From a virus, in IMG/VR virus record IMGVR_UViG_3300013125_000041, positions 1 to 26,463 of that record: 26,463 bases of DNA, one strand, 5' to 3'. Shown here in pieces: positions 1-19,917 of the stretch. The translations under genes and the position numbers were made by a program. How positions within the stretch are numbered: position 1 is the first letter of the stretch; the number at the start of each line of letters is the position of its first letter. The notes under the pieces were generated by a model, which was not told where the DNA came from, did no database searches, and saw nothing but the letters and a program-made list of their open reading frames with translations.

Positions 1-58
1 AACGACCAGTTACTTGGCAAGTCGTTTTGTAAATGTAATGGTGTTGTTTGCGTGGCAT
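1..58 (-). CDS. GIY-YIG endonuclease, 5' end only (cut by window edge)
   Basis: The first 19 codons of a minus-strand gene are visible before the window ends. They read MPRKQHHYIYKTTCQVTGR, which matches the N-terminus shared by the GIY-YIG genes at 1520-2122, 3939-4790, 5468-6136 and 6553-7185 (MARKQHKYHYIYKT). The Y-I-Y tripeptide is the start of the GIY half of the nuclease motif. The ATG at 58-56 forms the last three bases of an 18-bp perfect hairpin (56-107) with a late promoter box in its loop, the same arrangement as in its relatives. The remainder lies outside the window, so I cannot say whether it is intact. Confidence 0.8.
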   Translation of the reverse strand, partial: MPRKQHHYIYKTTCQVTGR

Positions 59-107
59 TTTTGTACTGATGTCTTTTGATTATTTATACGACATCAGTAC
101 AAAAATG
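56..107 (-). promoter_or_regulatory. Hairpin with late promoter box in loop, covering start codon
   Basis: An 18-bp perfect inverted repeat (56-73 with 90-107) encloses a 16-nt loop. On the minus strand the loop reads GTATAAATAATCAAAA and so contains a T4-type late box TATAAATA. The 3' arm ends in the ATG of the GIY-YIG gene at 1-58. A long read-through RNA would fold and hide the start codon. An RNA started at the late box would lack the 5' arm and leave the start free. Confidence 0.75.
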
Positions 108-115
108 ACCAGATG

Positions 116-201
116 TAGCGGGAATAGGATTCGAACCCATGTTCTCTTTCGAGTTATGGCTTATGAGACCCCGCTGGTGGCCATCTCCAGTCGACCCCGC
201 A
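116..201 (-). tRNA. tRNA with CAT anticodon and type II-like variable arm
   Basis: The minus strand shows a D-arm CTGG/CCAG, an anticodon loop CTCATAA (CAT), a variable hairpin CTC-GAAA-GAG and a T-arm ATGGG-TTCGAAT-CCTAT. The acceptor TGCGGGG/TCCCGCT has an unpaired 1:72 position, a feature of initiator tRNAs. The anticodon stem is weak (about 4 of 5 pairs). The long variable arm is not expected for Met or Ile2, so its identity is uncertain. It starts only 3 nt after the upstream tRNA-Phe. Confidence 0.65.
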
Positions 202-204
202 ATG

Positions 205-278
205 AGGAGATGGTCAGAATCGAACTGGACTCCTCTGGTTTTTCAGACCAGCGCTTCTACCAAGTTAGCTTCATCTCC
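205..278 (-). tRNA. tRNA-Phe (GAA)
   Basis: The acceptor GGAGATG/CATCTCC is perfect. The anticodon stem CTGGT/ACCAG closes the loop CTGAAAA with anticodon GAA. The D-loop has the usual GG. The T-loop is TTCGATT, but the outer two T-stem pairs are mismatched. No CCA is encoded. Confidence 0.88.
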
Positions 279-283
279 AAATA

Positions 284-367
284 CGTAACCTAAATTGCTA
301 CTAGCCATCCCGGTCCCAGGTTCGGGGCTTAAGACTAAGGTATGTGTCACTGTCACCCAAGGTTACG
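284..367 (-). other. tRNA-sized structured element without a T-loop
   Basis: This is the spacer between tRNA-Phe and tRNA-Val. It is closed by an 8-bp perfect stem (cgtaacct at 284-291 with aggttacg at 360-367). Inside are further short hairpins (CTTA/TAAG, GCT/AGC and a CCCCG...CCGGG arm). It has the size of a type II tRNA but shows no TTCGA-type T-loop on either strand. It could be a decayed tRNA, a processing signal or a small RNA. Confidence 0.45.
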
Positions 368-371
368 TGTG

Positions 372-457
372 TGGAACCACTCGGACTCGAACCGAGATCA
401 TACTTCGCGTCTCCACTTTGTAAGAGTGGGATGTTTATCCAGTTACACTATGGTTCC
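372..457 (-). tRNA. tRNA-Val (TAC), long variable loop
   Basis: The acceptor GGAACCA/TGGTTCC is perfect. The D-arm GTGT/ACAT has a GG in its loop. The anticodon stem CCACT/AGTGG closes CTTACAA (anticodon TAC). The T-arm is CTCGG-TTCGAGT-CCGAG. The variable region is 16 nt, much longer than normal for Val. The upstream endonuclease fragment uses bases 443-457 of this tRNA for its last codons and stop. Confidence 0.8.
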
Positions 458-682
458 TTTTAATTCCTCTATCTTACGTAAGAGGTATTCTTTTCCTATT
501 TTTGTGTTAGGATTTTTCCAATCTATTCGTATCACCGTAAAACCTAACGATTTTACAAATTCATCTCTGATTTTGTCACTCTTAATTCTATCTTCGAATT
601 TGTGTTGACTTCCGTCGATTTCCAAATTCAGTTTGCCACCTATTAGGAAATCTAAGAAATACGTTTTTCTACCATTAGTTAA
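443..682 (-). pseudogene. DUF559/Vsr-like endonuclease, C-terminal fragment
   Basis: An open frame of about 79 codons runs from just after a TGA at 685-683 to a stop inside tRNA-Val, with no ATG at its head. The sequence includes FLDFLIGGKLNLEIDGSQH and then GFTVIRIDW, the core of DUF559/very-short-patch-repair-like nucleases (LD...EIDGxQH...R). The same pattern occurs in the gene at 2944-3345. The N-terminal zinc-finger half seen there is missing, so this is probably a remnant. The last codons (for G-T-I-V and the stop) are formed by the 5' acceptor stem of tRNA-Val, which suggests the gene once inserted directly at the tRNA end. Confidence 0.6.
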
Positions 683-714
683 TCATATTGTATATCTTAA
701 GTTGTTATTTTATA

Positions 715-731
715 TACTATATGATACGTTA
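715..731. repeat. 17-bp inverted repeat, left copy
   Basis: The bases tactatatgatacgtta occur here. Their reverse complement recurs at 1468-1484 with one mismatch. The two copies flank the GIY-YIG/HTH gene (733-1302) and tRNA-Glu (1388-1463). Confidence 0.6.
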
Positions 732-732
732 G

Positions 733-1302
733 TTACTTTCTAACTCGTTCTTTTTTTACTTTATTTAAAATGTCCAATCCTTTAAGATTGGTAATGTAGT
801 CTTGTACCAATTTAAAATTTACAGTAGAATCAGATGTTTCGATTTTACTTATAGATGATCGGCCTACTCCTATTAATTCTGCCATTTCCTGTTGAGTTAA
901 ATTTCTAAAAACTCTTTCTCGTTTTAAAATATCAGGAATTCGGTATATGATTCTAACTAAAAAATTAAAATCAATTTCATCCTCTTCTGATCTACCTTCG
1001 ACTATCGGTTTTTCAATTAACATAATATTTAGTAATTCTGGATTTATGTAATGATAGTAATCAATCCAGTATTTTTCTCGATCGGCTAAATCTTCTAAGT
1101 TTTCAACTTCTTCAATTACATCAATTATAGGATATAAGAAGTTGTCAGATAAAGTTTGTACCCATTCCTTTACTTTTGGCGAATGCGATTTAGTAAGATG
1201 CGAGATTGGTCTTTTTACACTAACTGTAGATTTACCAATGTATTGATAAACATCATTACGTGGATCTCGTAAACCATAAATTATGTTCCGTGTATTTTCC
1301 AT
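733..1302 (-). CDS. GIY-YIG-type nuclease fused to an Xre-family helix-turn-helix
   Basis: The 189-aa product starts at MENTRNIIYGL. An in-frame ATG 21 nt upstream exists but gives an odd MFKIIII leader. Residues about 5-90 resemble a GIY-YIG domain (NIIYGLRDP, then YQYIGKS, and the conserved Glu in ADREKYWIDYY). Residues about 135-180 form a classic Xre/lambda-repressor-type HTH (LTQQEMAELIGVGRSSISKIE). It is distinct from the MARKQHKY group. A late-type box (AGATAAATAA) lies about 30 nt upstream at 1331-1340. It is probably a homing-type nuclease whose HTH supplies DNA binding or autoregulation, and the flanking inverted repeats at 715-731 and 1468-1484 are candidate sites. Function is inferred from motifs only. 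Confidence 0.7.
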   Translation of the reverse strand: MENTRNIIYGLRDPRNDVYQYIGKSTVSVKRPISHLTKSHSPKVKEWVQTLSDNFLYPIIDVIEEVENLEDLADREKYWIDYYHYINPELLNIMLIEKPIVEGRSEEDEIDFNFLVRIIYRIPDILKRERVFRNLTQQEMAELIGVGRSSISKIETSDSTVNFKLVQDYITNLKGLDILNKVKKERVRK

Positions 1303-1330
1303 TATGATTATTATTTTAAACACTAAATAG

Positions 1331-1340
1331 TTATTTATCT
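1331..1340 (-). promoter_or_regulatory. T4-type late promoter box (AGATAAATAA)
   Basis: The minus strand reads AGATAAATAA about 30 nt upstream of the GIY-YIG/HTH start. It matches the loop sequence found in the hairpins before the other endonuclease genes, but here only a weak hairpin can be drawn. Confidence 0.5.
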
Positions 1341-1387
1341 AAGAACACTCAGATTTTTTATTTAATGATTAAAATAGTAATCATTGG

Positions 1388-1463
1388 TACTCCGTAGGGG
1401 ATTTGAACCCCTGATCTTCAGGATGAAAACCTGATGTCCTAGACCGTACTAGACGAACGGAGC
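1388..1463 (-). tRNA. tRNA-Glu (TTC), CCA encoded
   Basis: The acceptor GCTCCGT/ACGGAGT, the anticodon stem CAGG/CCTG closing TTTTCAT (TTC) and the T-arm AGGGG-TTCAAAT-CCCCT are all clear. The three bases after the discriminator (1387-1385) encode CCA. Confidence 0.92.
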
Positions 1464-1467
1464 ATGA

Positions 1468-1484
1468 TAATGTATCATATAGTA
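1468..1484. repeat. 17-bp inverted repeat, right copy (with a nearby direct repeat)
   Basis: Taatgtatcatatagta is the reverse complement of 715-731 with one mismatch. A further copy of about 22 bp with three mismatches lies at 1500-1521, in direct orientation to 1469-1490 with a 31-bp period. The AT-rich motif may be an operator or nuclease site. Confidence 0.55.
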
Positions 1485-1519
1485 AACATTTCGTGACAAA
1501 ATGTATCATATATTGAACA

Positions 1520-2122
1520 TTATATTGTCAATGTTCTTCCTCTTTCCCATCCTTGTGAAAAAAATGAATCGAGTTCAGATAACTTAATCTTTTTATTTCC
1601 ATGTTCTTCGTGAAAGATCCAACAAGTGCCCCAGCAACTGCTTTTGTCACCAGTTCTTTGTTGCGTCTTTTCTCTTAATCTTTGTTTTGTTTCTTCTGTG
1701 TGATGTTTTCCAGCAAACGTATTTCTTGATATGATCTTCATTTGAGCAGCATAGATTGGATCTTGCCATCTTCTTTTAAGACTATTTGATGCGCCAGCAT
1801 GAGCTTTTTTCAAAACCTCATTTCCTGGATTACCACCTTCATCGCCAACCATTAAGTTCATGCACATAAGATCTTCTAAGAACTTTTCGTTGATGATTTC
1901 CTTTTCTCTTATTTTCAAAGAATTTCTGTCAGGCAAAAACTCCAAGATTTCTTTTCGATGATTCTCGAGTCCGTGCTTACGAATTGAGTGCCAAAGTCTT
2001 TTTCCACTTCCGATATACCCATCTTCAAGATTATCGGTCGAGTGCATTCCTACATAAAAGTTTCCTGTTGTGATACAAATCGTTTTATAGATGTAATGAA
2101 ACTTTCTTTCTTGTCTTGCCAT
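1520..2122 (-). CDS. GIY-YIG homing-type endonuclease
   Basis: The 200-aa product is read from the ATG at 2122-2120 (MARQERKFHYIYKT). This start is preferred over the upstream in-frame ATG at 2161 because it matches the MARKQHKY starts of the sister genes and directly follows a promoter hairpin. The GIY-YIG core is HYIYKT...FYVGMHST, followed by GYIGSGKRLW and the conserved Glu of KIREKEII. The C-terminal part carries the module WGTCWI...KIKL...GWERGR, shared with 5468-6136 and 6553-7185, which is probably the DNA-recognition part. Family members of this type are free-standing homing endonucleases (T4 Seg-like). The downstream tRNA-Glu lies 57 nt away. Confidence 0.85.
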   Translation of the reverse strand: MARQERKFHYIYKTICITTGNFYVGMHSTDNLEDGYIGSGKRLWHSIRKHGLENHRKEILEFLPDRNSLKIREKEIINEKFLEDLMCMNLMVGDEGGNPGNEVLKKAHAGASNSLKRRWQDPIYAAQMKIISRNTFAGKHHTEETKQRLREKTQQRTGDKSSCWGTCWIFHEEHGNKKIKLSELDSFFSQGWERGRTLTI

Positions 2123-2160
2123 TGTACCTAAGTTTTTCTTTATATCATTTCTTAGGTACA
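2123..2160 (-). promoter_or_regulatory. Hairpin with late-type box before GIY-YIG gene
   Basis: A 10-bp perfect stem (tgtacctaag at 2123-2132 with cttaggtaca at 2151-2160) closes an 18-nt loop. On the minus strand the loop contains TATAAAGA, a near match to the late box. The ATG begins at the first base after the 3' arm. The loop resembles the segment upstream of the gene at 3306-3602 (GATATAAAGAAAAAC). Confidence 0.65.
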
Positions 2161-2173
2161 CAAATGTTCATGG

Positions 2174-2245
2174 TATTGGGTGAGGGAATCGAACCCTCGT
2201 TCTTAGACTGAGAATCTATTTTCCTAGCCACTAGAAGAACCCAAC
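2174..2245 (-). tRNA. tRNA-Glu (CTC)
   Basis: The acceptor GTTGGGT/ACCCAAT, the D-arm TTC-TAGTGGCTAG-GAA, the anticodon loop TTCTCAG (CTC) and the T-arm GAGGG-TTCGATT-CCCTC are clear. It complements the TTC isoacceptor at 1388-1463. Confidence 0.87.
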
Positions 2246-2253
2246 GTGTTTTG

Positions 2254-2330
2254 TACTGGCGGAGGGATTTGAACCCGCATGTAACCAGTTACCCTTTCTA
2301 CAAGGTATAAGCTTGAGGGGATACGCCAGC
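2254..2330 (-). tRNA. Non-canonical tRNA-like gene, possible Ile (TAT), no D-arm
   Basis: The acceptor GCTGGCG/CGCCAGT and the T-arm GCGGG-TTCAAAT-CCCTC are normal. Only seven bases (TATCCCC) separate the acceptor from a hairpin TCAAG-CTTATAC-CTTGT that looks like an anticodon arm. A 21-nt segment then precedes the T-arm and contains GTAAC-TG-GTTAC. The same unusual layout is found at 3653-3729. The anticodon call is tentative. Confidence 0.5.
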
Positions 2331-2351
2331 AAGTAAGTTGGAGAGAAAATC

Positions 2352-2398
2352 GGAAGAGCTGTTTAAGTAAAACCAAAATTTACGAAGTAACTCTTTCC
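2352..2398 (-). other. Mini tRNA-like hairpin with a Gln (TTG) type anticodon arm
   Basis: The outer stem GGAAAGAG/CTCTTCC (one bulged A) encloses GTAAA-TTTTGGT-TTTAC, a 5-bp, 7-nt loop arm that would carry anticodon TTG. There is no D-arm or T-arm. Its flanks repeat those of the unit at 2654-2736, so it may be an internally deleted tRNA or a processing relic. Confidence 0.4.
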
Positions 2399-2412
2399 TT
2401 TACTACTCCTAG

Positions 2413-2487
2413 TGGATACGTATGGGCTTCGAACCCATGACCTGCTGAGTGCAAATCAGCCGCTCTTGCCATCTGAACTAACGACCC
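2413..2487 (-). tRNA. tRNA-Ala (TGC), bulged acceptor stem
   Basis: The anticodon stem GCTGA-TTTGCAC-TCAGC gives anticodon TGC, and the T-arm is ATGGG-TTCGAAG-CCCAT. The acceptor pairs GGGTCGT with ACG-ATCC only if one T is bulged on the 3' side. This makes it either a defective copy or a recent mutation, and an intact TGC tRNA lies next door (2560-2633). Confidence 0.8.
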
Positions 2488-2493
2488 AAAGTT

Positions 2494-2558
2494 TGCGATT
2501 GAGGCTTACCTATCCGCCTCCATTGGTACCATGGACAGAGGAGCTGGTTACAATCGCA
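2494..2558 (-). other. tRNA-sized cruciform between two tRNA-Ala genes
   Basis: An 8-bp perfect stem (tgcgattg at 2494-2501 with caatcgca at 2551-2558) encloses an arm CCAT-GGTACCA-ATGG and an arm GAGGC...GCCTC. The fold is cloverleaf-like, but no standard T-loop is present. It sits 1 nt after one tRNA and 6 nt before the next, as a tRNA would. Confidence 0.45.
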
Positions 2559-2559
2559 G

Positions 2560-2633
<74 letters not shown>

Positions 2634-2653
2634 AAAATTAAGTAGAGAAAGTC

Positions 2654-2736
2654 GGAAGAGATAACTGGCGGTTTCGACACCGCGACTTTTGTTTAAGAGA
2701 CAAATGCTGGACTCCCAGCTCGAAGTAACTCTTTCC
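2654..2736 (-). tRNA. Non-canonical tRNA-like gene, possible Lys (CTT)
   Basis: The anticodon arm TTTGT-CTCTTAA-ACAAA (CTT) is perfect. The T-arm has GCGGT...ACCGC around a short GTCGAA loop. The closing stem is about 12 bp, with a bulge and a mismatch, so it is far longer than a 7-bp acceptor. The segment in the D-arm position is GCTGG-GAG-TCCAGC. Flanks are repeated at 2341-2407. Confidence 0.45.
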
Positions 2737-2751
2737 ATTACTACCACTTAG

Positions 2752-2827
2752 TAGGGTAGGTGGGCTATGACCCCACGTGCTCTTGATCCCAAATCAAGCG
2801 AGATAAACCTGACTCCTCTACTACCCT
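2752..2827 (-). tRNA. tRNA-Pro (TGG)
   Basis: The acceptor AGGGTAG/CTACCCT is perfect. The anticodon stem CTTGA-TTTGGGA-TCAAG gives TGG. The T-stem GTGGG/CCCAC is perfect, but its loop is GTCATAG instead of TTCRANN. Confidence 0.82.
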
Positions 2828-2893
2828 GTGATGTTATTTTTTAAGAATTCCAGATATGGCGTCCTATGAAACCATCAAACTGTCTCCCATGTG

Positions 2894-2966
2894 TAGTGTC
2901 TCTGGGACTCGAACCCAGAACCATTTAATCTTTCTATGCCTTATCAGAGCGAGGGTATACGTGCCA
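2894..2966 (-). pseudogene. Chimeric, probably non-functional tRNA overlapped by an endonuclease gene
   Basis: The 3' half is a good T-arm (CTGGG-TTCGAGT-CCCAG) plus acceptor strand AGACACT-A. The 5' half nearly copies the unit at 3653-3729 (TATACCCTCGCTCTGATAAG). The 5' end cannot pair with AGACACT. The endonuclease at 2944-3345 ends inside this 5' half and takes its last codons (R-I-P-S-L-stop) from it. It looks like a tRNA whose 5' part was replaced when the nuclease gene moved in. Confidence 0.6.
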
Positions 2967-3345
2967 ATATATCTTTAACGGATTGTAAAATGTTTTCTTC
3001 CGGCCATTTCACTCGATAAACTTGCCATCCGTTTTCTTTAAGCAATTTATCTTTCTTATCATCTATGCTTTTTCTTTCACATAATGTGTGTTGCTGTCCA
3101 TCAATTTCTATAGCAATCTTATGTTCAAGTAGAGCGAAATCTATAAAGTACGGATGAAAAGAATATTCACGTTCATATTTAATCCCAGACGATTCAAGAA
3201 CATAATTTGCTAATTTTTCAGGATATGACATTTCAAACACTGTTCTTTTTTGCCAACCAAATTTTACATTAGGATCCGCGTGTTTTTTCTTAGCATTTTT
3301 TGATGCTAAATTTTCATCAGATCTTGATATTCTTTTCGACTCCAT
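2944..3345 (-). pseudogene. DUF559/Vsr-like endonuclease, 3' part of a frameshifted gene
   Basis: The 133-aa frame contains KFGWQKRTVFEMSYPEKLA, then YSFHPYFIDF, IAIEIDGQQH and GWQVYRVKW. These are the catalytic elements of the DUF559/Vsr-like PD-(D/E)XK nucleases. It overlaps the zinc-finger frame 3306-3602 in the -1 frame, and the two together look like one zinc-finger/nuclease gene of about 215 residues. The overlap shows no convincing slippery heptamer, so a frameshift mutation is more likely than programmed shifting. The ATG at 3345 could still allow separate translation. The 3' end lies in a chimeric tRNA. Confidence 0.65.
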
Positions 3346-3602
3346 CTTAATTTAGAACTACACGATAAAGAACATGTTGTTTGATTTCTTTTGTTCCATT
3401 TAACGGTAAAAGAATTTCCACAAATTACACAAATGTTTGTGATTTTATCATGTCCTGAACCAATAATCTTTAATCTAACTTTTTCATTGATTTCTTTTCG
3501 TTTTGCTTTAGTACTAAAACCGTACTTGCATTTCTTTGAGCAAAATCTTCCAGTTTCAAAACTTTCATCGTGATCATTCCCACAGTTTTCACAAGGTTTC
3601 AT
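3306..3602 (-). pseudogene. Double zinc-finger N-terminal part of the same endonuclease
   Basis: The 98-aa frame carries two CxxC...CxxxC fingers: CENCGNDHDESFETGRFC with KKC at residues about 4-27, and CVICGNSF...TTCSLSC at about 58-80. Such fingers head many phage-encoded putative homing nucleases. The second finger is closely related to the C-terminal finger of the GIY-YIG gene at 3939-4790 (CESCGESF...KTCSLSC), so this module has been swapped between nuclease types. It ends at a TAG just where the DUF559 frame takes over. Upstream is GATATAAAGAAAAAC, a late-type box also seen in the 2123-2160 hairpin, here with only an imperfect stem. Confidence 0.65.
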
Positions 3603-3652
3603 GGTATATGTTTTTCTTTATATCATTACGAACCTATGAATTTTTATCTTTG

Positions 3653-3729
3653 TAGGCAAGGTGGGGCTCGAACCCACATGTAACCATTTAACCTTTCTAC
3701 GCCTTATCAGAGCGAGGGTATACATGCCT
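3653..3729 (-). tRNA. Non-canonical tRNA-like gene, possible Ile (GAT), no D-arm
   Basis: The acceptor AGGCATG/CTTGCCT (one T-T mismatch) and the T-arm GTGGG-TTCGAGC-CCCAC are normal. Seven bases (TATACCC) lead directly into TCGCT-CTGATAA-GGCGT, an anticodon-like arm with GAT. A 21-nt segment follows before the T-arm and shares AGAAAGG, TAA and TGGTTACAT with 2254-2330. Confidence 0.5.
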
Positions 3730-3736
3730 GTATAGT

Positions 3737-3901
3737 TTAACTTTCATATAATCGTGATAAGTTTTCTCCGTATTTTTCTTTTACATACTTAAATATTGAT
3801 TGAAGTTTTTCATAGTCATATACAATAAGTTTTTCAGGAAATTGCTTTTCTTTTTCTTCCCATTGTTTTGACTTATATCCTTTTACTTCTTCAAAATTTC
3901 C
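3737..3901 (-). pseudogene. PD-(D/E)XK-type nuclease, C-terminal fragment (EVKGYKS)
   Basis: An open frame of 54 codons without a start reads GNFEEVKGYKSKQWEEKEKQ and continues to KLIVYDYEKL. The EVKG...KLIVY pattern matches the catalytic strand pair of PD-(D/E)XK nucleases and resembles EVKGFF in the split-intein nuclease at 17804-18637. It begins directly at the truncated tRNA half at 3905-3948, so the N-terminal part was lost in the same event. It stops 8 nt before the next tRNA-like unit. Confidence 0.5.
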
Positions 3902-3904
3902 AAG

Positions 3905-3948
3905 TTCCGGCCTCAACCGGACGCTCTAAGCTGCTGAGCTAATGGGAT
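3905..3948 (-). pseudogene. Truncated tRNA, 5' half only
   Basis: The sequence gives an acceptor 5' strand ATCCCAT, a clear D-arm (TAGCTCAGCAGCTTAGAGC) and an anticodon-like stem TCCGG/CCGGA with a 6-nt loop TTGAGG. It then runs into nuclease fragment coding with no T-arm. The upstream GIY-YIG gene (3939-4790) ends within its first bases. Confidence 0.6.
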
Positions 3949-4790
3949 ATTTCTTTGTTTCGGCGTTTTTTAGCACCGACTCGTAAAGATAGTATGCGAT
4001 TTTTTCGAAAGATTTTATTGTTCCAAGATAATTTAGTGGAACAAGACAATGAGCAAGTTTTTTGTTTTCTTTTAGTGTATGGAATTTCAAATGATTCGCC
4101 GCACGATTCACAAATCTTTGTTATTTTGTGCTGTTCCTTTTTCGGTAATGCAAGCCCTATTTTCCAACCATTATTGATGTATTCAGGAATAGAGGAATGG
4201 TCGACTCTTTTATTTCCAAAGGTCGGATGAGTCATCCAATGCTTACCGTATCCGTTATTTTTACAACCTGCATTTGCTTCTGAATTTTTAATTCCTATTT
4301 TTTTCTTCGTTTCTTCAGTATGATGTTTTCCTGTCCAAGAAATGTGGTTCATCATTTTTTCTCGGTATTCTGGAGAAGTCCATCGTTCTTTCAATTCTTC
4401 GCTGATTTGTTCCTTTCTTCTCTTTGAAAGAACCGGATCACTCCAAAGCTTTATTGCTCGATTCCTTGCTCCCTTTTTGCATCCATCCTTTGATATGAAA
4501 CCCCCGCCTCCACCGTAAACCAAATTCATGCACATTGGATCCTTCAGAACGTCCTCGTTGACGAGTTGAGTTTCCCTATTCTTAAGAGCTTGCCTGCTCT
4601 CCAGGAACTCCAGAATCTCCCTATTATGATTTTCTCTACCATGTTTGTTTATTGATAGCCAGAGTCTCCTACCGCTTCCGATGTATTCATCTTCTAAGTT
4701 GTCGGTAGAGTGCATTCCTACGTAGTATCGTCCTGTGATCTTGCACGTCGTCTTGTAGATGTAATGGTATTTGTGTTGCTTTCTTGCCAT
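3939..4790 (-). CDS. GIY-YIG endonuclease with C-terminal zinc finger
   Basis: The 283-aa product starts at an ATG in the base of the 4789-4836 hairpin. The GIY-YIG domain spans about residues 1-105: HYIYKT at 9-14, YYVGMHST, EYIGSGRRLW and the Glu of NRETQLV. The middle has the GYGKHWMTH...GWKIG module, a variant of the WITN...GW..GR recognition segment of the sister genes. Residues about 220-250 add a zinc finger (CESCGESF, TCSLSC) shared with 3306-3602. The C-terminus may be shortened: after the finger it keeps only about 35 residues and stops (S-H-stop) inside the 5' end of the broken tRNA at 3905-3948. Confidence 0.85.
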   Translation of the reverse strand: MARKQHKYHYIYKTTCKITGRYYVGMHSTDNLEDEYIGSGRRLWLSINKHGRENHNREILEFLESRQALKNRETQLVNEDVLKDPMCMNLVYGGGGGFISKDGCKKGARNRAIKLWSDPVLSKRRKEQISEELKERWTSPEYREKMMNHISWTGKHHTEETKKKIGIKNSEANAGCKNNGYGKHWMTHPTFGNKRVDHSSIPEYINNGWKIGLALPKKEQHKITKICESCGESFEIPYTKRKQKTCSLSCSTKLSWNNKIFRKNRILSLRVGAKKRRNKEISH

Positions 4791-4836
4791 TTCGTAACTT
4801 CACTTTCAATTATTTATCTGAGTGAAGGTACGAAAT
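4789..4836 (-). promoter_or_regulatory. Hairpin with late promoter box in loop, before GIY-YIG gene
   Basis: A 16-bp stem (4789-4804 with 4821-4836, one C-T mismatch) encloses a 16-nt loop containing AGATAAATAAT on the minus strand. The start codon lies at the 3' foot of the stem. The lower stem uses a C-G pair where the copy at 7184-7231 has T-A, a compensatory change. Confidence 0.75.
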
Positions 4837-4846
4837 AGTCACGAGG

Positions 4847-4919
4847 AGCTTCCTGTCGGAATCGAACCAACGACATCCTCATTACAAGTGAGGCTCTCTA
4901 CCTGCTGAGATAAGGAAGC
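4847..4919 (-). tRNA. tRNA-Thr (TGT)
   Basis: The acceptor GCTTCCT/AGGAAGC is perfect. The D-arm is TCTC-AGCAGGTA-GAGA. The anticodon stem CCTCA-CTTGTAA-TGAGG gives TGT. The T-arm is GTTGG-TTCGATT-CCGAC. Confidence 0.93.
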
Positions 4920-4938
4920 AAATCACAAAAGAGTTGAG

Positions 4939-5012
4939 AGCCCTATGACCGATTCGAACGGTCGACCTACTGAGTACGAAACAGTCGCTCTGCCGAACTG
5001 AGCTAAAAGGGC
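4939..5012 (-). tRNA. tRNA-Thr (CGT)
   Basis: The acceptor GCCCTTT/ATAGGGC has one T-T mismatch, and the T-arm is GACCG-TTCGAAT-CGGTC. The anticodon arm ACTGT-TTCGTAC-TCAGT gives CGT with a mismatch at 31:39. The upstream YkgJ-like gene ends within its first ten bases. Confidence 0.85.
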
Positions 5013-5449
5013 ATTATAACATTAGAGGCTTCTATGAATTCCTTGGTGCCGATTCGATTGACTCCTCCGTCAACGAAATAGAGAACGTTGTTGCCGGTGT
5101 TAAGCGCCCATAGGAAGATCCAGTTAAGAACTGCAGAATCTATTTTGACTTCGGCTTCGATCACTTGGTAGTGTTCGATTTTTCCAGTCTTCTTCGTGAT
5201 GATGACGTTGGAATTGCTGGGCTTCATCCACATCGGAATGGTATCGTTAGTCAACCATTCGCACTTGTAAGTGATGCACGGATCGATTGGACGATTCTCA
5301 TAAATGGTACAACCCTTTCCGCTCTCTACGAAATGGCAAGGTTTTCCCCTGTAGAACTTTTCGCCGTGAGCTTTTCCGCTCAACCAACCTTCGCAACAGC
5401 GTGTGCATCCGTCGCAATTCTTTTTCGGCATGTTAATGTTAGCGTCCAT
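5003..5449 (-). CDS. YkgJ-like cysteine cluster protein
   Basis: The 148-aa product has CDGCTRCCEGW at residues about 13-23 and later GKPCHF, GKGCTIYENRP and ITYKCEWL. This is the layout of the YkgJ (CxxCxxCC) family, thought to bind zinc or an iron-sulfur cluster; its function is unknown. The start at MDANINM was taken as the first ATG, but the second Met (MPKKNCDG) is possible; neither has a Shine-Dalgarno sequence. It lies 19 nt after a GIY-YIG gene and its stop overlaps the tRNA-Thr(CGT) 5' end by 10 nt, so it may be cargo brought in with the nuclease. Confidence 0.75.
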   Translation of the reverse strand: MDANINMPKKNCDGCTRCCEGWLSGKAHGEKFYRGKPCHFVESGKGCTIYENRPIDPCITYKCEWLTNDTIPMWMKPSNSNVIITKKTGKIEHYQVIEAEVKIDSAVLNWIFLWALNTGNNVLYFVDGGVNRIGTKEFIEASNVIMPF

Positions 5450-5467
5450 CTTAGCAATTTTGATCTA

Positions 5468-6136
5468 TTATATCGAAATGCTGGATGAAGTTTCGACATG
5501 TTTATTGTAGTTAGTTCTACCTTTTTTCCAACCAGGTTGAAGATTTTGACCTTTTTTGATCTTTTGATTTTCTATACCGTTTGTTATCCATATAGTTCCA
5601 AACTGCGAATTATTAAAACCAATTTGTTTAACAGAATTTATGGCTGCAATTTTTTTCTTAGTTTCTGGCGAATGTTCTCTATTCAAAAATGGTTTCTTTG
5701 TACTCATTTTTTCTCTAAATTCTGGTGTTTTCCAAGCTGCGGTAAATATTCTAGTTGCTCGTTTGCTAAGTATTTCAGGATGTTCTTTCATGTATTGGTT
5801 AACTGTCCTGAATTTATCTCCGCCTATTTGCTTTCCGTTGTTTGGCCAACCGCTTCCACCGACACATAAATTCATGCACATAGGATCCTTCAGAACGTCA
5901 TCGTTTACGAGTTGATGTTCTCTATCCTTCAATGCTTGTCGATTCTCTAGGAACTCCAAGATCTCTTTGGTGTGATTCTCCTTGCCGTGCTTATTTATGG
6001 ACAGCCAGAGTCTTCTACCGCTTCCGAGATACCCGTCTTCTAAGTTTGACGTAGAGTGCATTCCGATGTAGTATCTACCAGTAATACTGCATTTGGTCTT
6101 GTAAATGTAATGGTATTTGTGTTGTTTTCTTGCCAT
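5468..6136 (-). CDS. GIY-YIG homing-type endonuclease
   Basis: The 222-aa product is MARKQHKYHYIYKT... with YYIGMHST, GYLGSGRRLW and the Glu of KDREHQLV. The first 100 or so residues are almost the same as in 6553-7185. The middle diverges and has several basic stretches. The C-terminal part has the module FGTIWITNG...KIKKG...GWKKGR. The ATG lies at the foot of the 6135-6182 hairpin. It is followed closely by the YkgJ-like gene. Confidence 0.87.
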   Translation of the reverse strand: MARKQHKYHYIYKTKCSITGRYYIGMHSTSNLEDGYLGSGRRLWLSINKHGKENHTKEILEFLENRQALKDREHQLVNDDVLKDPMCMNLCVGGSGWPNNGKQIGGDKFRTVNQYMKEHPEILSKRATRIFTAAWKTPEFREKMSTKKPFLNREHSPETKKKIAAINSVKQIGFNNSQFGTIWITNGIENQKIKKGQNLQPGWKKGRTNYNKHVETSSSISI

Positions 6137-6182
6137 TTCGTAACTTCACTTTCGATTATTTATCTGAGTGAAGGTACAAAAT
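6135..6182 (-). promoter_or_regulatory. Hairpin with late promoter box in loop, before GIY-YIG gene
   Basis: A 16-bp stem (6135-6150 with 6167-6182) contains one G-T wobble and one C-T mismatch. The loop holds AGATAAATAATCG on the minus strand. The G-T pair sits exactly where the sister hairpins have C-G or T-A, an intermediate in a compensatory change. Confidence 0.75.
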
Positions 6183-6191
6183 AGTCACAAG

Positions 6192-6264
6192 CACCCGTGG
6201 AAGGACTTGAACCCTCAACCCTCGGTTTTGGAGACCGGTACTCTACCAATTGAGCTACACGGAT
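6192..6264 (-). tRNA. tRNA-Trp (CCA)
   Basis: The acceptor ATCCGTG/CACGGGT and the discriminator G are clear. The anticodon stem CCGGT-CTCCAAA-ACCGA gives CCA. The T-loop is TTCAAGT. Confidence 0.92.
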
Positions 6265-6312
6265 AAGTTTGATTTGAGAATGGTAAAAAGAGTTTTTGCA
6301 CTGGGCGACTTT

Positions 6313-6382
6313 TGGAGCCTGGTATTGGATTCGAACCAATGTTAACCATCGATGTATCTCTTTTTTTGCTACAAATCATTGG
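6313..6382 (-). pseudogene. tRNA 3' half with encoded CCA, no matching 5' half
   Basis: A perfect T-arm (ATTGG-TTCGAAT-CCAAT) is followed by ACCAGGC, discriminator T and CCA. The required 5' strand GCCTGGT is absent before the upstream tRNA-Asp. The preceding bases include GTAG and ATGGTTA, similar to the odd 21-nt segment in 2254-2330 and 3653-3729. It is probably a tRNA remnant. Confidence 0.5.
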
Positions 6383-6455
6383 CAGTGCTGACGGGGCTCG
6401 AACCCGCGACCTGAGGATAGACAGTCCACCACTCTTCCTGCTGAGCTACAGCACT
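6383..6455 (-). tRNA. tRNA-Asp (GTC), copy 1
   Basis: The acceptor AGTGCTG/CAGCACT is perfect, with discriminator G. The anticodon loop CTGTCTA gives GTC. The T-arm is GCGGG-TTCGAGC-CCCGT. Confidence 0.9.
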
Positions 6456-6472
6456 ATTTTATTTTTGGCAAG

Positions 6473-6546
6473 CGGTCTGTACGGGACTCGAACCCGTGAC
6501 CTTCGCCGTGACAGGGCGACATTGTAACCAACTCTACTAACAGACC
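6473..6546 (-). tRNA. tRNA-Asp (GTC), copy 2
   Basis: The acceptor GGTCTGT/ACAGACC is perfect, with discriminator G. The anticodon stem TCGCC-CTGTCAC-GGCGA gives GTC. The body differs from copy 1, so it is not a simple duplication. The upstream GIY-YIG gene ends 6 nt before it. Confidence 0.9.
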
Positions 6547-6552
6547 AAATAT

Positions 6553-7185
6553 TTACATGATTCTTCCTTTATGCCAACCATCTGGAGGAATCTCTGTATT
6601 CTTAATTTTTTTATTGATCGAACCATTCGTTATCCATATCGTACCGTATTGATTATTATTTTTTCCGGTTTGTACGACTGATAATTTATGGCTTATTGTT
6701 AATTTGGTGGAATTTTTATGTTTACGATCTTTCCAATTTAATGAAAACTTAAAACCTTCAGCTATTCGTTTAGAATTATTCTGACTTACTTTTTCGGAAA
6801 AACTTTTTCTAAATGCTTGGTCGTTTTTAATTTTTTCAGAAAAAGCTAAGGTTGCTGCGGTTTGAGCTTTTTTTGCATGTTCGATATTACAAAAACCTCC
6901 TCCACCACCCGGTTGCAAATTCATGCACATAGGATCCTTCAGGGTATCATCGTTTACGAGTTGATGTTCTCTATCCTTTAGTGCTTGTCGATTCTCTAGG
7001 AACTCCAGAATCTCTTTGGTGTGATTTTCTTTTCCATGTTTATTGATTGATAACCAAAGACGTCTGCCGCTTCCGATGTACTCGTCATTTAAGTTAGAAG
7101 TCGAATGCATTCCTATGTAATATCGGCCGGTAATACTACAAGTAGTTCGGTAAATGTAATGATATTTGTGTTGTTTTCTTGCCAT
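6553..7185 (-). CDS. GIY-YIG homing-type endonuclease
   Basis: The 210-aa product begins MARKQHKYHYIYRT with YYIGMHST, EYIGSGRRLW and the Glu of KDREHQLV. Its C-terminal module YGTIWITNG...KIKN...GWHKGR matches that of 5468-6136. The middle differs (KNDQAFRKSFSEKVSQNNS), probably the part that sets DNA target. The ATG is at the foot of the 7184-7231 hairpin. The stop lies 6 nt before tRNA-Asp copy 2, so the gene fills the spacer between two tRNAs. Confidence 0.87.
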   Translation of the reverse strand: MARKQHKYHYIYRTTCSITGRYYIGMHSTSNLNDEYIGSGRRLWLSINKHGKENHTKEILEFLENRQALKDREHQLVNDDTLKDPMCMNLQPGGGGGFCNIEHAKKAQTAATLAFSEKIKNDQAFRKSFSEKVSQNNSKRIAEGFKFSLNWKDRKHKNSTKLTISHKLSVVQTGKNNNQYGTIWITNGSINKKIKNTEIPPDGWHKGRIM

Positions 7186-7231
7186 TTTGTAACTTCACTT
7201 TTGATTATTTATCTGAGTGAAGGTACAAAAT
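7184..7231 (-). promoter_or_regulatory. Hairpin with late promoter box in loop, before GIY-YIG gene
   Basis: A 16-bp stem (7184-7199 with 7216-7231, one C-T mismatch) encloses a 16-nt loop with AGATAAATAATCA on the minus strand. The ATG lies at the 3' foot. Here the variable stem pair is T-A instead of the C-G of 4789-4836. Confidence 0.77.
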
Positions 7232-7239
7232 AGTCACGG

Positions 7240-16809: not shown

Positions 16810-17835
16810 TTAGAATGTCGTTATTGCGCAGGCTCCACCTGAACAAGCCAATTCGCCTTTCAGATCAGTAACATCTTCAAGTTCAATAACTTGCGAAAGA
16901 TCGACCTTAGTTAGGTGGGCCATCATTTCGTCGTACACTTCTGGAGTACAATCCTCAAATGGAGCCTGAACGTACGATCCACCGTCGTAAGGCAGAACTG
17001 CCAAGCCGTTGTAGAACTTACGATTCTCCCACATCCATTCTCCAACTTCGTCCCATTCGCCTTCGCGTATGGAAACGGTAGCTGAAATGTTGTGAGTGTT
17101 CTGTCCAGTTCTATGCCCCGGTTTTATCCAGTCGGTGTAGAAAGTTTTCACTCTTTCAAGAAGATCGAGAGCAGTTTCGTACCTCAGTATCGATCCCTCT
17201 GGGGATCTTTGTGGTACTTGGATGATGGCAGTATCATGCGGACAGAAAAAGTCATTCTCAAGCAATTCTGGGTGATGGATTGATAGGTAGGTGTAGATAG
17301 ATTCGTTCTTACCTACTCTTACCCTACGAATGTAGTGATTGTTGTGCCATGCATGAATTCCGGAAGAAGTTCCGAGAACCAAGCTGGAAGTTCCGCTTGG
17401 TTTGATAGTAGTGCATCTTGCTGCTGGATTGATTCCGATTGCAAAAGCAACCCGTTCGTTCTCCTTCTTCACGACGTCTGCTGCTTCTTTCAAGTTGTAC
17501 TTCTGGGCTGCTCCGGATCCGATGCCGGTCATTCCGACTCCAATGAGAGCTTCGCGTTCGGTAGTCCTCTGCCAGTTGGGGCGAAGGTAATGGAAGCTTG
17601 TGTACCCTGCTTGCAAGGTTCCAATGAAAGATGCAGCTTTGACTCGAGCGTTAAGATCGGCTTGAGATTCGATGTCTGAAGCATTCACCTCGCATAGGTT
17701 ACAGAATTGGAAAGGTCTTAGGGAAATTTCGCAATTATGCACTAATATATTGTTAGCAAAGAAGTTATGATTTTTTTCAACTTGAATATCATAAACATCC
17801 TCGTTAACTTCCACAGTTATTCTTTTTATTTTCAT
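16810..17835 (-). CDS. nrdJ: Class II ribonucleotide reductase, C-terminal half with C-intein
   Basis: Residues 1-34 are the C-terminal part of a split intein: VYDIQVEKNHNFFANNILVHN, with the invariant His-Asn at the splice site, followed by +1 Cys. The C-extein (307 aa) starts CEISLRPFQFCNL, the conserved sequence that follows the thiyl-radical cysteine. It includes IKPSGTSSLVLGTSSGIH and ends ACSGGACAITTF, whose two Cys fit the redox pair at the C-terminus. After trans-splicing with the product of 18673-19917 it should give an adenosylcobalamin-dependent reductase of about 620 residues that makes dNTPs for phage replication. Its first 32 nt overlap the endonuclease gene. Confidence 0.93.
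   Translation of the reverse strand: MKIKRITVEVNEDVYDIQVEKNHNFFANNILVHNCEISLRPFQFCNLCEVNASDIESQADLNARVKAASFIGTLQAGYTSFHYLRPNWQRTTEREALIGVGMTGIGSGAAQKYNLKEAADVVKKENERVAFAIGINPAARCTTIKPSGTSSLVLGTSSGIHAWHNNHYIRRVRVGKNESIYTYLSIHHPELLENDFFCPHDTAIIQVPQRSPEGSILRYETALDLLERVKTFYTDWIKPGHRTGQNTHNISATVSIREGEWDEVGEWMWENRKFYNGLAVLPYDGGSYVQAPFEDCTPEVYDEMMAHLTKVDLSQVIELEDVTDLKGELACSGGACAITTF
17734..17835 (-). other. C-intein coding segment (34 aa)
   Basis: It encodes MKIKRITVEVNEDVYDIQVE and then KNHNFFANNILVHN, with terminal His-Asn and a following Cys codon. The similarity to the NrdJ-1 C-intein (DTYDIQ...HNFFANDILVHN) is from memory and strong. Confidence 0.92.
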
Positions 17836-18637
17836 TTATCTTTCGTATTTTTTTCCATTCTTTCAATTCGGATATGTAATTCGATCCAGATTCGCAGTAC
17901 GTTGATATTGATGAATTTGTAAAGTTCAGCAAAATCACAGATACGTTTATATCAGAATTCAATAATTCTGCTTTATACGCGAGAGGATCAAAGAATCCTT
18001 TTACTTCAAGTATCTTCGATATTTCACCGTTTTCGTAAATAAAGAAGTCAGGTCTATACTCTTTTCCATTTGATAACGTGTATTTTTTTACTTCTGTGTC
18101 CCATACTTGATGAGTTCGGTCCAACCATTTGGCGTATATGTATTCATACGTACTTCGCAACCATACCCACTTATCCATAGACCGATTGAAATACCATCCC
18201 TGAACCCCGCGATTGGTTTTATTTTTTATTGCTATATTTTGTCTCACTGTGTCTGAAAACCATCCAGTTTTAGTATTCATTTCCATCTGACACTTGTTAG
18301 CTCTTTTAATGCGTAACTCGCCAGTCACGACGTTATATCCGTGTCTGATTGGGATGTTCAGATACTTAAAAAGTTGTCTAATTAGAGTATATGACGATTG
18401 TAATTCGCTGGCGATTGATTTAAGACCATGACCGTCATTGTACTTTTTAGTTAGCCACTGTATCTGTTCAACAGTAACGTATTTTTTTATCATGAACTCT
18501 TTATAAACTACAGAAAACTTAGATACTTGAGTTTTTCTGAAGTCTAAATATTCATTCATAAACCCATCTCTTTCTATCTTTGATCGCAATTCCTTTTTTG
18601 AAAGAGACAAAATCTCCGTTACGTTGGACATTTTCAT
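17804..18637 (-). CDS. PD-(D/E)XK homing endonuclease inside a fractured nrdJ gene
   Basis: The 277-aa protein lies between the two split-intein genes. The N-terminal third is helical, with an HTH-like segment (VEQIQWLTKKYNDGHGLKSI, ASELQSS). The C-terminal part carries STYEYIYAKWLD, then KEYRPDFFIYENGEISKILE and VKGFF, giving E...PD...ExK as in Vsr-like/PD-(D/E)XK nucleases. Free-standing nucleases of this general fold are known from fractured genes with split inteins. Its start (MKM or MSN) follows a hairpin-borne late box at 18644-18672, so it can be expressed apart from nrdJ. It ends by overlapping the C-intein start by 32 nt. Confidence 0.85.
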   Translation of the reverse strand: MKMSNVTEILSLSKKELRSKIERDGFMNEYLDFRKTQVSKFSVVYKEFMIKKYVTVEQIQWLTKKYNDGHGLKSIASELQSSYTLIRQLFKYLNIPIRHGYNVVTGELRIKRANKCQMEMNTKTGWFSDTVRQNIAIKNKTNRGVQGWYFNRSMDKWVWLRSTYEYIYAKWLDRTHQVWDTEVKKYTLSNGKEYRPDFFIYENGEISKILEVKGFFDPLAYKAELLNSDINVSVILLNFTNSSISTYCESGSNYISELKEWKKIRKINENKKNNCGS

Positions 18638-18643
18638 GATTGA

Positions 18644-18672
18644 ACCCGTGTGTTTATTTTATTTATACGGGT
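18644..18672 (-). promoter_or_regulatory. Hairpin with late promoter box before the split-intein endonuclease
   Basis: A 6-bp stem (acccgt at 18644-18649 with acgggt at 18667-18672) encloses a 17-nt loop. Minus-strand TATAAATA spans 18660-18667. The 3' arm is 7 nt before the ATG, in the ribosome-binding region. It lies directly after the N-intein stop codon and repeats the design used by the GIY-YIG genes. Confidence 0.68.
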
Positions 18673-19917
18673 CTACCACATTAATAGTTCATCGTCCTCC
18701 GTAAGTTTAGCAGCCTCAACGTAACCTCTGTTTTTGGTGTACACTTGGTGATCTGGAGTCAATTTTATGATCGATCCATTTTCCAACTCGAGCTTTATGA
18801 GTTCGGCGTTTTGTCTGGTTAAATCAGCAGCTTCTATAGACATGAGCTCTCGAGTTGCGGTTTTTTCATCATACGTCCAGACCTTTGGGCAGGATCCGGT
18901 TTTTTTATGAAGATTTACTAATTCTCTGATCGGTATCTCTCCGTTCTTGGTTTGAATGAGAGTATCTCCGCTCAAGCAACACGGATTGGTTCCCCAGTCC
19001 TTGTCGTTGCTGAAGTAAATTCCCGGCTCTCCTGCTCCCGATGCTTTGATCTTGCCCCATAAGTCGAGGAAGAATTCCTTTTCGATCTTGTTTCTCAACA
19101 GCACAGCAGAGTTGTTAGCTCTTCCCCTTTGTGGGTTCAGTTCCCACCACATTCCAGCCTTTGATGAAATCATTTCATCGTCGTCAGCACTGAACAGGCT
19201 GATCAGAGCAGCTCTACGAATTCCACCGGTTAGGACAGCGTCCGCAATGTGGCATACGAGATCGTGAACTTCGATCGGCTTCAGTTTCTCGTTGTTCTCC
19301 TTTTGGGATAGTAGACCCTCAATTTTCATTAGGCATTCCTTAAGCGGTTGCGGCCCCGGCGCTTTACCGCCGGAAGTTACGAGCTTTACTCCCTTCTGCC
19401 GAATGCCCCTGAAATCGAAATCGATCGCTGATCCTCCGAAAAAGTAGGATTTTACGAGAACTTTAACAGCATCGGCCCAACCCTCTATACTGTCACCAAT
19501 GAGAAACCTACGCTTGCGATTCGGATTCGGCTTATTGATTTCGGGTAAGTTGTCAACGTGATGCTTCTGAACGCTGAATCCGACTCCAGTTCCGCCAAGT
19601 AGCAGAAACATGATTTCGCTGAACGCTCTCCAATCATCGATTGGTAGGTACGCACAATTGTAAATTCGGTTCGGAGAAATTTCGATAGGTTTTCCACCGA
19701 ACTGTAATGATCTCATTGAGGGCAGAACTTTTCTATCGTAAACCAACTTGTAATTCTCTCGAATTTCTTCCTCAAGTTCCGGGTATTTTTTGATATGCAT
19801 GTTCATGTTTCGCGTCACCAGTTCGTCCCATGTTTCTCGTCTCTTCATCTCTGGAGAGTACCTCGCGTACTTCATGTAAACGGTGATGTCGCTCAAAATT
19901 TGGTTTGATAATTCCAT
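18673..19917 (-). CDS. nrdJ: Class II ribonucleotide reductase, N-terminal half with N-intein
   Basis: The 414-aa product has an N-extein of 313 residues and an N-intein of 101. The extein matches monomeric adenosylcobalamin-dependent reductases: KVLPSMRSLQFGG, IYNCAYLPID (the redox Cys that reduces substrate), LLGGTGVG and TGGIRRAALISLF. It ends WGTNPC, where the Cys is the thiyl-radical residue. The intein starts immediately after, CLSGDTLIQTKNGEIPIREL, and includes TPDHQVYTKNRGYV (block B) before stopping at LLMW. The intein therefore sits at the most conserved position of the enzyme, which should be inactive until spliced. The start is the only ATG at the head of the frame. Confidence 0.94.
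   Translation of the reverse strand: MELSNQILSDITVYMKYARYSPEMKRRETWDELVTRNMNMHIKKYPELEEEIRENYKLVYDRKVLPSMRSLQFGGKPIEISPNRIYNCAYLPIDDWRAFSEIMFLLLGGTGVGFSVQKHHVDNLPEINKPNPNRKRRFLIGDSIEGWADAVKVLVKSYFFGGSAIDFDFRGIRQKGVKLVTSGGKAPGPQPLKECLMKIEGLLSQKENNEKLKPIEVHDLVCHIADAVLTGGIRRAALISLFSADDDEMISSKAGMWWELNPQRGRANNSAVLLRNKIEKEFFLDLWGKIKASGAGEPGIYFSNDKDWGTNPCCLSGDTLIQTKNGEIPIRELVNLHKKTGSCPKVWTYDEKTATRELMSIEAADLTRQNAELIKLELENGSIIKLTPDHQVYTKNRGYVEAAKLTEDDELLMW
18676..18978 (-). other. N-intein coding segment (101 aa)
   Basis: It begins with Cys1 after NPC and contains block A (CLSGDTLI) and block B (TPDHQVY). There is no internal nuclease domain. The stretch LTRQNAELIKLELENG and TKNRGYVEAAKL resembles the NrdJ-1 split intein. 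Confidence 0.92.

What the first reader, a model, noticed from the sequence alone, without database searches (positions are those of the whole stretch)
56..7231. Late-promoter-in-a-hairpin switch repeated before GIY-YIG genes, with compensatory changes
Five hairpins (56-107, 2123-2160, 4789-4836, 6135-6182, 7184-7231) share a late-box loop while their stem sequences differ. In each, the ATG of the nuclease is in or against the 3' arm. One stem pair is C-G, G-T or T-A in three copies, which supports selection for the fold. Early read-through RNA would hide the start codon, and late RNA begun in the loop cannot fold. T4 intron nucleases such as I-TevI are known to be controlled this way. Here the device seems to be a standard module carried by a whole family.
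Basis: partly seen in the sequence, partly recalled or inferred. Interest (0 to 1): 0.85.

Follow-up and report, generated by a model that had tools for sequence, protein, structure and literature searches.

The report
Late-promoter hairpin switches on homing endonucleases
In this huge phage every copy of a selfish DNA-cutting gene starts with an RNA hairpin that should hide its start codon until the phage's own late promoter, sitting in the hairpin loop, makes a shorter RNA; relatives in other phages keep the hairpin but carry their own phage's late promoter instead, so the known T4 trick looks like a general, re-tuned timing device.

Summary
All five hairpins are at the stated places on the minus strand, each before or over the ATG of a SegB-like GIY-YIG gene (fold z -2.5 to -9). 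The box in the second copy is TATAAAGA, and three stems are near-copies. The switch is known in T4 (I-TevI, segB, lysozyme); segB and I-TevII served as positive controls here. It is a family feature: 55 GIY-YIG leaders have median fold z -5.2; 37 further leaders gave -3.0. In long phage records, opening the start region costs 16.8 kcal/mol (median) in read-through RNA and 1.8 in RNA begun at the predicted late start; other genes behind the same boxes cost 3.4 and 1.8. The new part: the loop box differs between phages in six dialects (T/GATAAATA, GATATATA, GTATTTAT, GCTAAATA, CTATTTAT, AATATATA), and in most tested records it is the motif most enriched upstream of that phage's own genes. These motifs precede T4 late-gene homologs (16/44), rarely replication genes (1/64). 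Thirteen of 14 phages match. The window also has a sixth such leader, before an intein-associated ORF. Nothing has been shown experimentally. New member of a known kind, with a generalisation I could not find reported.

The parts
56..107 (-). Hairpin 1: arms 90-107 and 56-73, 16-nt loop 74-89 with late box TATAAATA (88-81); ATG 58-56 lies in the 3' arm; predicted late RNA start about 75
   Evidence: z -9.0; opening 20.7 early vs 1.1 late kcal/mol
1..58 (-). Start of GIY-YIG gene copy 1 (runs off the window; whole, 212 aa, in overlapping contig G002)
2123..2160 (-). Hairpin 2: arms 2151-2160 and 2123-2132, loop with TATAAAGA (2144-2137), ATG at 2122 abuts the stem
   Evidence: z -2.5; opening 11.0 vs 2.3
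1520..2122 (-). GIY-YIG homing endonuclease copy 2 (phrog_314; weak SegE_GIY-YIG)
4789..4836 (-). Hairpin 3: loop with GATAAATA (4818-4811); ATG 4790-4788 at the end of the 3' arm; predicted late RNA start about 4805
   Evidence: z -6.3; opening 20.0 vs 2.3
3939..4790 (-). GIY-YIG homing endonuclease copy 3 (283 aa)
6135..6182 (-). Hairpin 4: loop with GATAAATA (6164-6157); ATG 6136-6134
   Evidence: z -3.6; opening 16.8 vs 2.8
5468..6136 (-). GIY-YIG homing endonuclease copy 4 (222 aa)
7184..7231 (-). Hairpin 5: loop with GATAAATA (7213-7206); ATG 7185-7183
   Evidence: z -5.7; opening 17.9 vs 2.3
6553..7185 (-). GIY-YIG homing endonuclease copy 5 (210 aa)
18644..18672 (-). Sixth hairpin, not in the finding: ACCCG / CGGGT core around TATAAATA (18667-18660), a few nt before ATG 18637
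   Evidence: opening 10.6 vs 1.1 kcal/mol
17804..18637 (-). Nuclease-like ORF (277 aa, no Pfam hit; nuclease role inferred) between the two intein-carrying halves of NrdA

Best explanation
Each hairpin is a timing switch for a free-standing SegB-like GIY-YIG homing endonuclease lodged just 3' of a tRNA gene. RNA that reads through from the tRNA operon contains both arms and folds, burying the start codon, so little nuclease is made. When late transcription begins, the phage's late RNA polymerase uses the promoter box in the loop (in some relatives the 5' arm) and starts about 13 nt downstream of the box start, at the first bases of the 3' arm; this RNA lacks the 5' arm, cannot fold, and is translated. 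The hairpin is kept by selection for pairing, while the box is re-tuned to the late-promoter dialect of whichever phage lineage carries the gene. Shown by computation: hairpins, pairing conservation, box identity with the lineage's own motif, accessibility difference. Inferred: that the boxes fire late, that read-through RNA exists early, and that translation differs.
For: Folds: 55 leaders (50 IMG/VR relatives and the five window copies), median z -5.2, 89% below -2; out-of-sample set of 37, median z -3.0, 26 below -2, opening 10.5 against 5.4 for shuffled leaders. Accessibility: GIY-YIG start region 16.8 early vs 1.8 late kcal/mol, other box-led genes 3.4 vs 1.8; difference >=8 in 19/21 vs 19/356, Fisher 1e-19. 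Positive controls: T4 segB, I-TevII, gene 49 and gene 26 give differences of 8.6-12.9; T4 genes 15, 18, 20, 22 give -0.1 to 1.8. Pairing: 5/14 pairs doubly changed, none in slid controls. Box tracks lineage: the top upstream 8-mer is the loop box for GATATATA (52 vs 2.2 expected), GTATTTAT (55 vs 3.2), GCTAAATA (16 vs 0.9), CTATTTAT (15 vs 0.5), AATATATA (60 vs 3.5), and ATAAATAA for the A-type records; 24/30 endonuclease leaders hold their own phage's box vs 4.7 expected. Motifs are late: 16/44 late homologs vs 1/64 replication homologs; tail sheath in 7/7 records where found. gp55-like late sigma in 10/15 records. A tRNA on the same strand ends within 120 nt upstream in 40/54.
Against: No transcript or protein data. 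The box of copy 2 is TATAAAGA, and only 3 such minus-strand sites exist in the joined 94 kb (all 12-22 nt before an ORF start). No gp55-like gene was found in the window's own phage fragments or in G001, G010, G004. In G006 four of nine GIY-YIG leaders lack the box, and G003's leader lacks it. The out-of-sample set folds more weakly than the first set. Box flavours were named after looking at loops, and leaders within one phage are not independent. Some structural genes also show the hairpin.
Confidence: 0.83

Rival explanations
1. The hairpins are transcription terminators or RNA-processing sites of the tRNA operon; the late box in the loop is incidental.
For: The hairpins' ATGs sit 27-67 nt after tRNA 3' ends, and T4 segB RNA is processed by RNase E (PMC2988022).
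Against: No terminator-like site coincides with any of the hairpins (that scan allows only 3-8 nt loops, so this is partial); the 3' arm is followed by ATG and codons, not a U-run. The arm is placed relative to the ATG, even pairing with early codons in many relatives. It would not explain why the loop box follows the lineage's promoter dialect. A like leader occurs on the intein-associated ORF family.
Confidence: 0.07
2. The palindromic leader is a DNA operator: the endonuclease binds it to repress its own late promoter, as shown for I-TevI.
For: I-TevI binds an operator overlapping its late promoter (PMC2988022). A conserved block GTGAACnTTTTTGTACC precedes many stems.
Against: An operator predicts conserved sequence; the stems are conserved in pairing but not in sequence. 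It could act in addition, on the conserved outer block.
Confidence: 0.06
3. The hairpin keeps translation low at all times (a brake on a costly nuclease), with no temporal switch.
For: Pairing over the start codon is the most constant feature; some leaders lack a recognisable box (G003, four in G006).
Against: The box sits so that the late RNA loses the 5' arm, and that RNA is as open as other late genes' (1.8 kcal/mol each). A brake alone does not need a lineage-matched promoter box.
Confidence: 0.04

Closest known systems
T4 segB (free-standing GIY-YIG homing endonuclease between tRNA-Arg and tRNA-Ile)
   Same: Homologous gene (T4-like SegB proteins about 37-38% identical to a window copy), same tRNA context and orientation, late-type box plus hairpin over the start region; early-late opening difference 10.2 kcal/mol in my calculation. 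Described in PMC2988022.
   Different: In T4 the box (CATAAATA) lies in the 5' arm of a short-loop hairpin; here it lies in a 16-18 nt loop. T4 has one segB; this phage has at least seven copies.
I-TevI, I-TevII, I-TevIII leaders of T4 and mobE of phage Aeh1
   Same: Late promoter placed so that late RNA lacks the 5' strand of a start-site hairpin; early RNA is poorly translated (experiments reviewed in PMC2988022, PMC3014915).
   Different: Intron-borne or HNH type; here free-standing in a tRNA cluster. Only the arrangement, not the effect, is shown here.
T4 genes e (lysozyme), soc, 49, 25/26
   Same: Same logic for ordinary late genes lying on early transcripts (PMC3014915, PMC2988022); two endolysins in related huge phages show it too.
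   Different: Not mobile genes.
Lineage-specific late promoters of T4-like phages (CTAAATA in Aeh1, PMC1524935)
   Same: Shows that late boxes differ between T4-related phages, as found here for six dialects.
   Different: GATATATA, GTATTTAT, CTATTTAT, AATATATA were found here de novo; I found no description of them in the papers read.

Membership tests
T4-type late-promoter / start-site hairpin switch | Hairpin that pairs the start codon or ribosome-binding site in long RNA | tested here: met
   5/5 window copies, opening 11-21 kcal/mol
T4-type late-promoter / start-site hairpin switch | Late-type box placed so that late RNA loses the 5' arm | tested here: met
   Box+13 falls at the start of the 3' arm; late RNA opening 1.1-2.8 kcal/mol. 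Copy 2 has a non-consensus box TATAAAGA.
T4-type late-promoter / start-site hairpin switch | The box is a late promoter of this phage | tested here: inconclusive
   ATAAATAA/GATAAATA/TATAAATA are enriched upstream of genes in the same phage's contig G002 and in related G001, G010, but no late homolog was found behind a box in these fragments and no gp55 gene was found in them. In flavours B, C, D the motifs do precede late-gene homologs.
T4-type late-promoter / start-site hairpin switch | Gene lies downstream of genes transcribed early in the same direction | tested here: inconclusive
   tRNA genes lie on the same strand directly upstream; that they are transcribed early is inferred from T4
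T4-type late-promoter / start-site hairpin switch | Translation repressed early and released late | not testable with these tools
   needs an infection time course
SegB-like free-standing GIY-YIG homing endonucleases | GIY-YIG domain with conserved residues | tested here: met
   phrog_314 E 8e-33 to 6e-36; YIY...GMHST...GSG blocks invariant; PF01541 hits are below its curated cut-off
SegB-like free-standing GIY-YIG homing endonucleases | Cuts a cognate site and homes | not testable with these tools
   needs biochemistry or crosses
Intrinsic terminator | Stem followed by a U-run | tested here: not met
   and sequence: ATG and codons follow
Known Rfam RNA element | Match at gathering score | tested here: not met
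   only tRNAs

The most novel reading that the evidence does not exclude
A start-site hairpin with a late-promoter box in or by its loop is a general regulatory cassette of phage homing endonucleases across T4-related huge phages and at least two unrelated nuclease families. The pairing is conserved while the box is repeatedly rewritten to the late-promoter dialect of each new phage host, so that the loop of an endonuclease leader reports the phage's late promoter.
Probability: 0.65. Interest if true: 0.7.

Novelty: new member of a known kind. Interest (0 to 1): 0.58.

Why it matters
Homing endonucleases move between phages whose late promoters differ. If the leader must be rewritten to fit each late polymerase, this shows how selfish genes stay silent early and are tolerated, and gives a way to read the late promoter of uncultured huge phages from one gene. 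It turns a set of T4 cases into a testable rule, and pairs most box dialects with a divergent gp55-like sigma factor whose specificity could be tested.

Tried and rejected
Megablast of the window against phages found only a tRNA match. MAFFT alignment of the mixed TATAAATA/GATAAATA leaders is not structurally consistent because loops differ in length, so covariation was counted only on the gapless GATATATA set. The arm-swap figure (self 100%, cross 47%) is biased, since self pairs come from the fold itself, and I do not lean on it. G014 and G015 gave no clear motif and cannot test the box rule. For G008 the TATAAATA-type box is not the top k-mer; it was kept because it precedes 4 of 11 late homologs there and 0 of 11 early ones. 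The tree of the nuclease needs at least 11 changes of box flavour by parsimony, but deep branches are weak, so repeated rewriting is likely rather than proven. G002 was first counted as an independent record; it overlaps the window by 833 identical bases, so the match is 13 of 14 phages, not 14 of 15.

Full report
WHAT IS THERE. The window is a 26.5-kb fragment of a T4-related phage record; its gp52-type topoisomerase is about 51% identical to those of 634-642 kb uncultured huge phages. Fifteen tRNA genes lie on the minus strand. Between them sit five SegB-like GIY-YIG genes on the same strand (phrog_314; alignment). Another IMG/VR contig (G002, 68.7 kb) overlaps the window by 833 identical bases (window 1-833) and holds the whole of copy 1 plus two more copies, so this phage has at least seven.

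OBSERVATION. All five hairpins are real. Loops hold TATAAATA (copy 1), TATAAAGA (copy 2) and GATAAATA (copies 3-5). Three stems are near-copies. The cited C-G/U-G/U-A pair is real but weak evidence alone. Distances from box to ATG are regular, mostly 27-31 nt for the commonest boxes in the joined 94 kb.

SWITCH TEST. With the T4 rule that TATAAATA spans -13 to -6 (PMC1524935), the predicted late RNA starts at the edge of the 3' arm. I computed the energy needed to open -12 to +3 in read-through RNA and in late RNA. Window copies: 20.7/1.1, 11.0/2.3, 20.0/2.3, 16.8/2.8, 17.9/2.3 kcal/mol. Over 12 long records plus the window, 21 GIY-YIG leaders have medians 16.8/1.8 and 356 other genes behind the same boxes 3.4/1.8; a difference of at least 8 occurs in 19/21 against 19/356. 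The same calculation on T4 recovers segB, I-TevII, 49 and 26 (8.6-12.9) and leaves 15, 18, 20 and 22 at -0.1 to 1.8; reviews name these four among the genes with such structures (PMC2988022, PMC3014915).

FAMILY. IMG/VR relatives gave 50 non-redundant leaders; with the window's five the median fold z is -5.2, 89% under -2. A second scan with a different query alignment gave 37 new leaders: median z -3.0, 26 under -2, opening 10.5 against 5.4 for shuffled leaders and 1.7 when cut at -16. In seven GATATATA leaders a 14-bp helix is 100% paired with five doubly changed pairs; sliding the columns leaves none. A same-strand tRNA ends within 120 nt upstream in 40 of 54.

BOX DIALECTS. The loops do not all hold TATAAATA. 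I fetched long records and asked which 8-mers are enriched upstream of all genes. G007: GATATATA, 52 against 2.2 expected; G004: GTATTTAT, 55 against 3.2; G001, G002, G010: ATAAATAA with GATAAATA or TATAAATA. G006: GCTAAATA, 16 against 0.9; G009, G005, G003, G011: GATATATA/ATATATAA. G013: CTATTTAT, 15 against 0.5, none on the opposite strand; LR756502 (231 kb of 642 kb): AATATATA, 60 against 3.5. In nearly all, the nuclease leader carries that same box in its hairpin: for example LR756502's single GIY-YIG gene reads aactattttAATATATAaaaataaaatagttATG. Counted over 15 records, 24 of 30 leaders hold their own record's box against 4.7 expected (p about 3e-15 if independent), and 14 of 15 records match against 4.5 under permutation (p 5e-5). 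Since G002 is the window's phage this is 13 of 14 phages. Caveats: flavours were named after seeing the loops; the six GATATATA records are related; G008's box is not its top motif; G003 does not match; in G006 four of nine leaders lack the box; for G013 the leader is that of an intein-ORF relative, not of a GIY-YIG gene.

ARE THE BOXES LATE PROMOTERS? They lie within 100 nt upstream of 16 of 44 homologs of T4 late genes and 1 of 64 homologs of replication or early genes; the tail sheath gene has one in all seven records where it was found. A gp55-like late sigma was found in 10 of 15 records, none in G000, G001, G002, G010, G004. For the window's own phage the lateness of the box is therefore by analogy. 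Aeh1 is known to use CTAAATA and a diverged gp55 (PMC1524935), the same core as in G006.

BEYOND GIY-YIG. ORF 17804-18637 (minus), between the intein-bearing halves of NrdA, has TATAAATA inside a hairpin and 10.6/1.1 kcal/mol. Several relatives of this ORF also have start-site hairpins of 10-23 kcal/mol with CTATTTATA, CTACTTATA or ATACTTATA in the loop. Other genes with the device include a helix-turn-helix ORF that looks HNH-like, a NUMOD3/LEM-3-type GIY-YIG ORF, a DUF7487 ORF and two endolysins (Amidase_2, GH108), plus some large structural-looking genes. Other nuclease-like ORFs of the window (3306-3602, 733-1323) have a box but little hairpin (differences of 3.4 and 4.2).

ALTERNATIVES. 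A terminator is unlikely: none is found at the hairpins and ATG follows the stem. No Rfam family other than tRNA matches. An operator role for the protein may exist in addition. A permanent brake does not explain lineage-matched boxes.

VERDICT. The part I could not find in the papers searched is the family-wide conservation and the tracking of the phage's own late-promoter dialect. The library holds open-licence papers only, so absence there is weak evidence of novelty.

Noticed in passing
window 16810-19917 (-): NrdA is split in two ORFs that each carry part of an intein, with a nuclease-like ORF between them: a 'fractured gene' arrangement (name from memory).
   Followed up: partly
G009 about 125003 (-) and G006 about 219008 (-), reverse-strand coordinates: Endolysin genes (Amidase_2; Glyco_hydro_108) with late box and start-site hairpin, like T4 lysozyme gene e.
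   Followed up: partly
G012 148239 (-), G003 113051 (+), G005 139218 (+), G006 326840 (+): Very long structural-looking genes (about 1470-1580 aa) whose late box also sits in a start-site hairpin.
   Followed up: no
5' of hairpins, e.g. window 7216-7238 (-), and most loci L004-L083: A block like GTGAACnTTTTTGTACC follows the tRNA 3' end across box dialects; it may be the left edge of the mobile cassette or an operator.
   Followed up: partly
G006 296078 (+) and 316712 (-): Variant design: GCTAAATA then a hairpin GGTCTC...GAGACC with the ribosome-binding site AAGGAG in its 3' arm; the predicted start still removes the 5' arm.
   Followed up: partly
window 3306-3602 (-) and 3939-4790 (-): The C-terminal CxxC...CSLSC zinc-like segment of GIY-YIG copy 3 resembles the small ORF 3306-3602, whose leader shares the tgaTATAAAGAaaaac context of copy 2 but little of its hairpin.
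   Followed up: no
G001, G004, G006, G007, G012, G013, LR756502: Likely late-promoter dialects of uncultured huge phages could be read out de novo: GATATATA, GTATTTAT, CTATTTAT, AATATATA, GCTAAATA.
   Followed up: yes
window about 117-178 (-): tRNA-like sequence directly upstream of copy 1 that ARAGORN and Rfam do not call.
   Followed up: no
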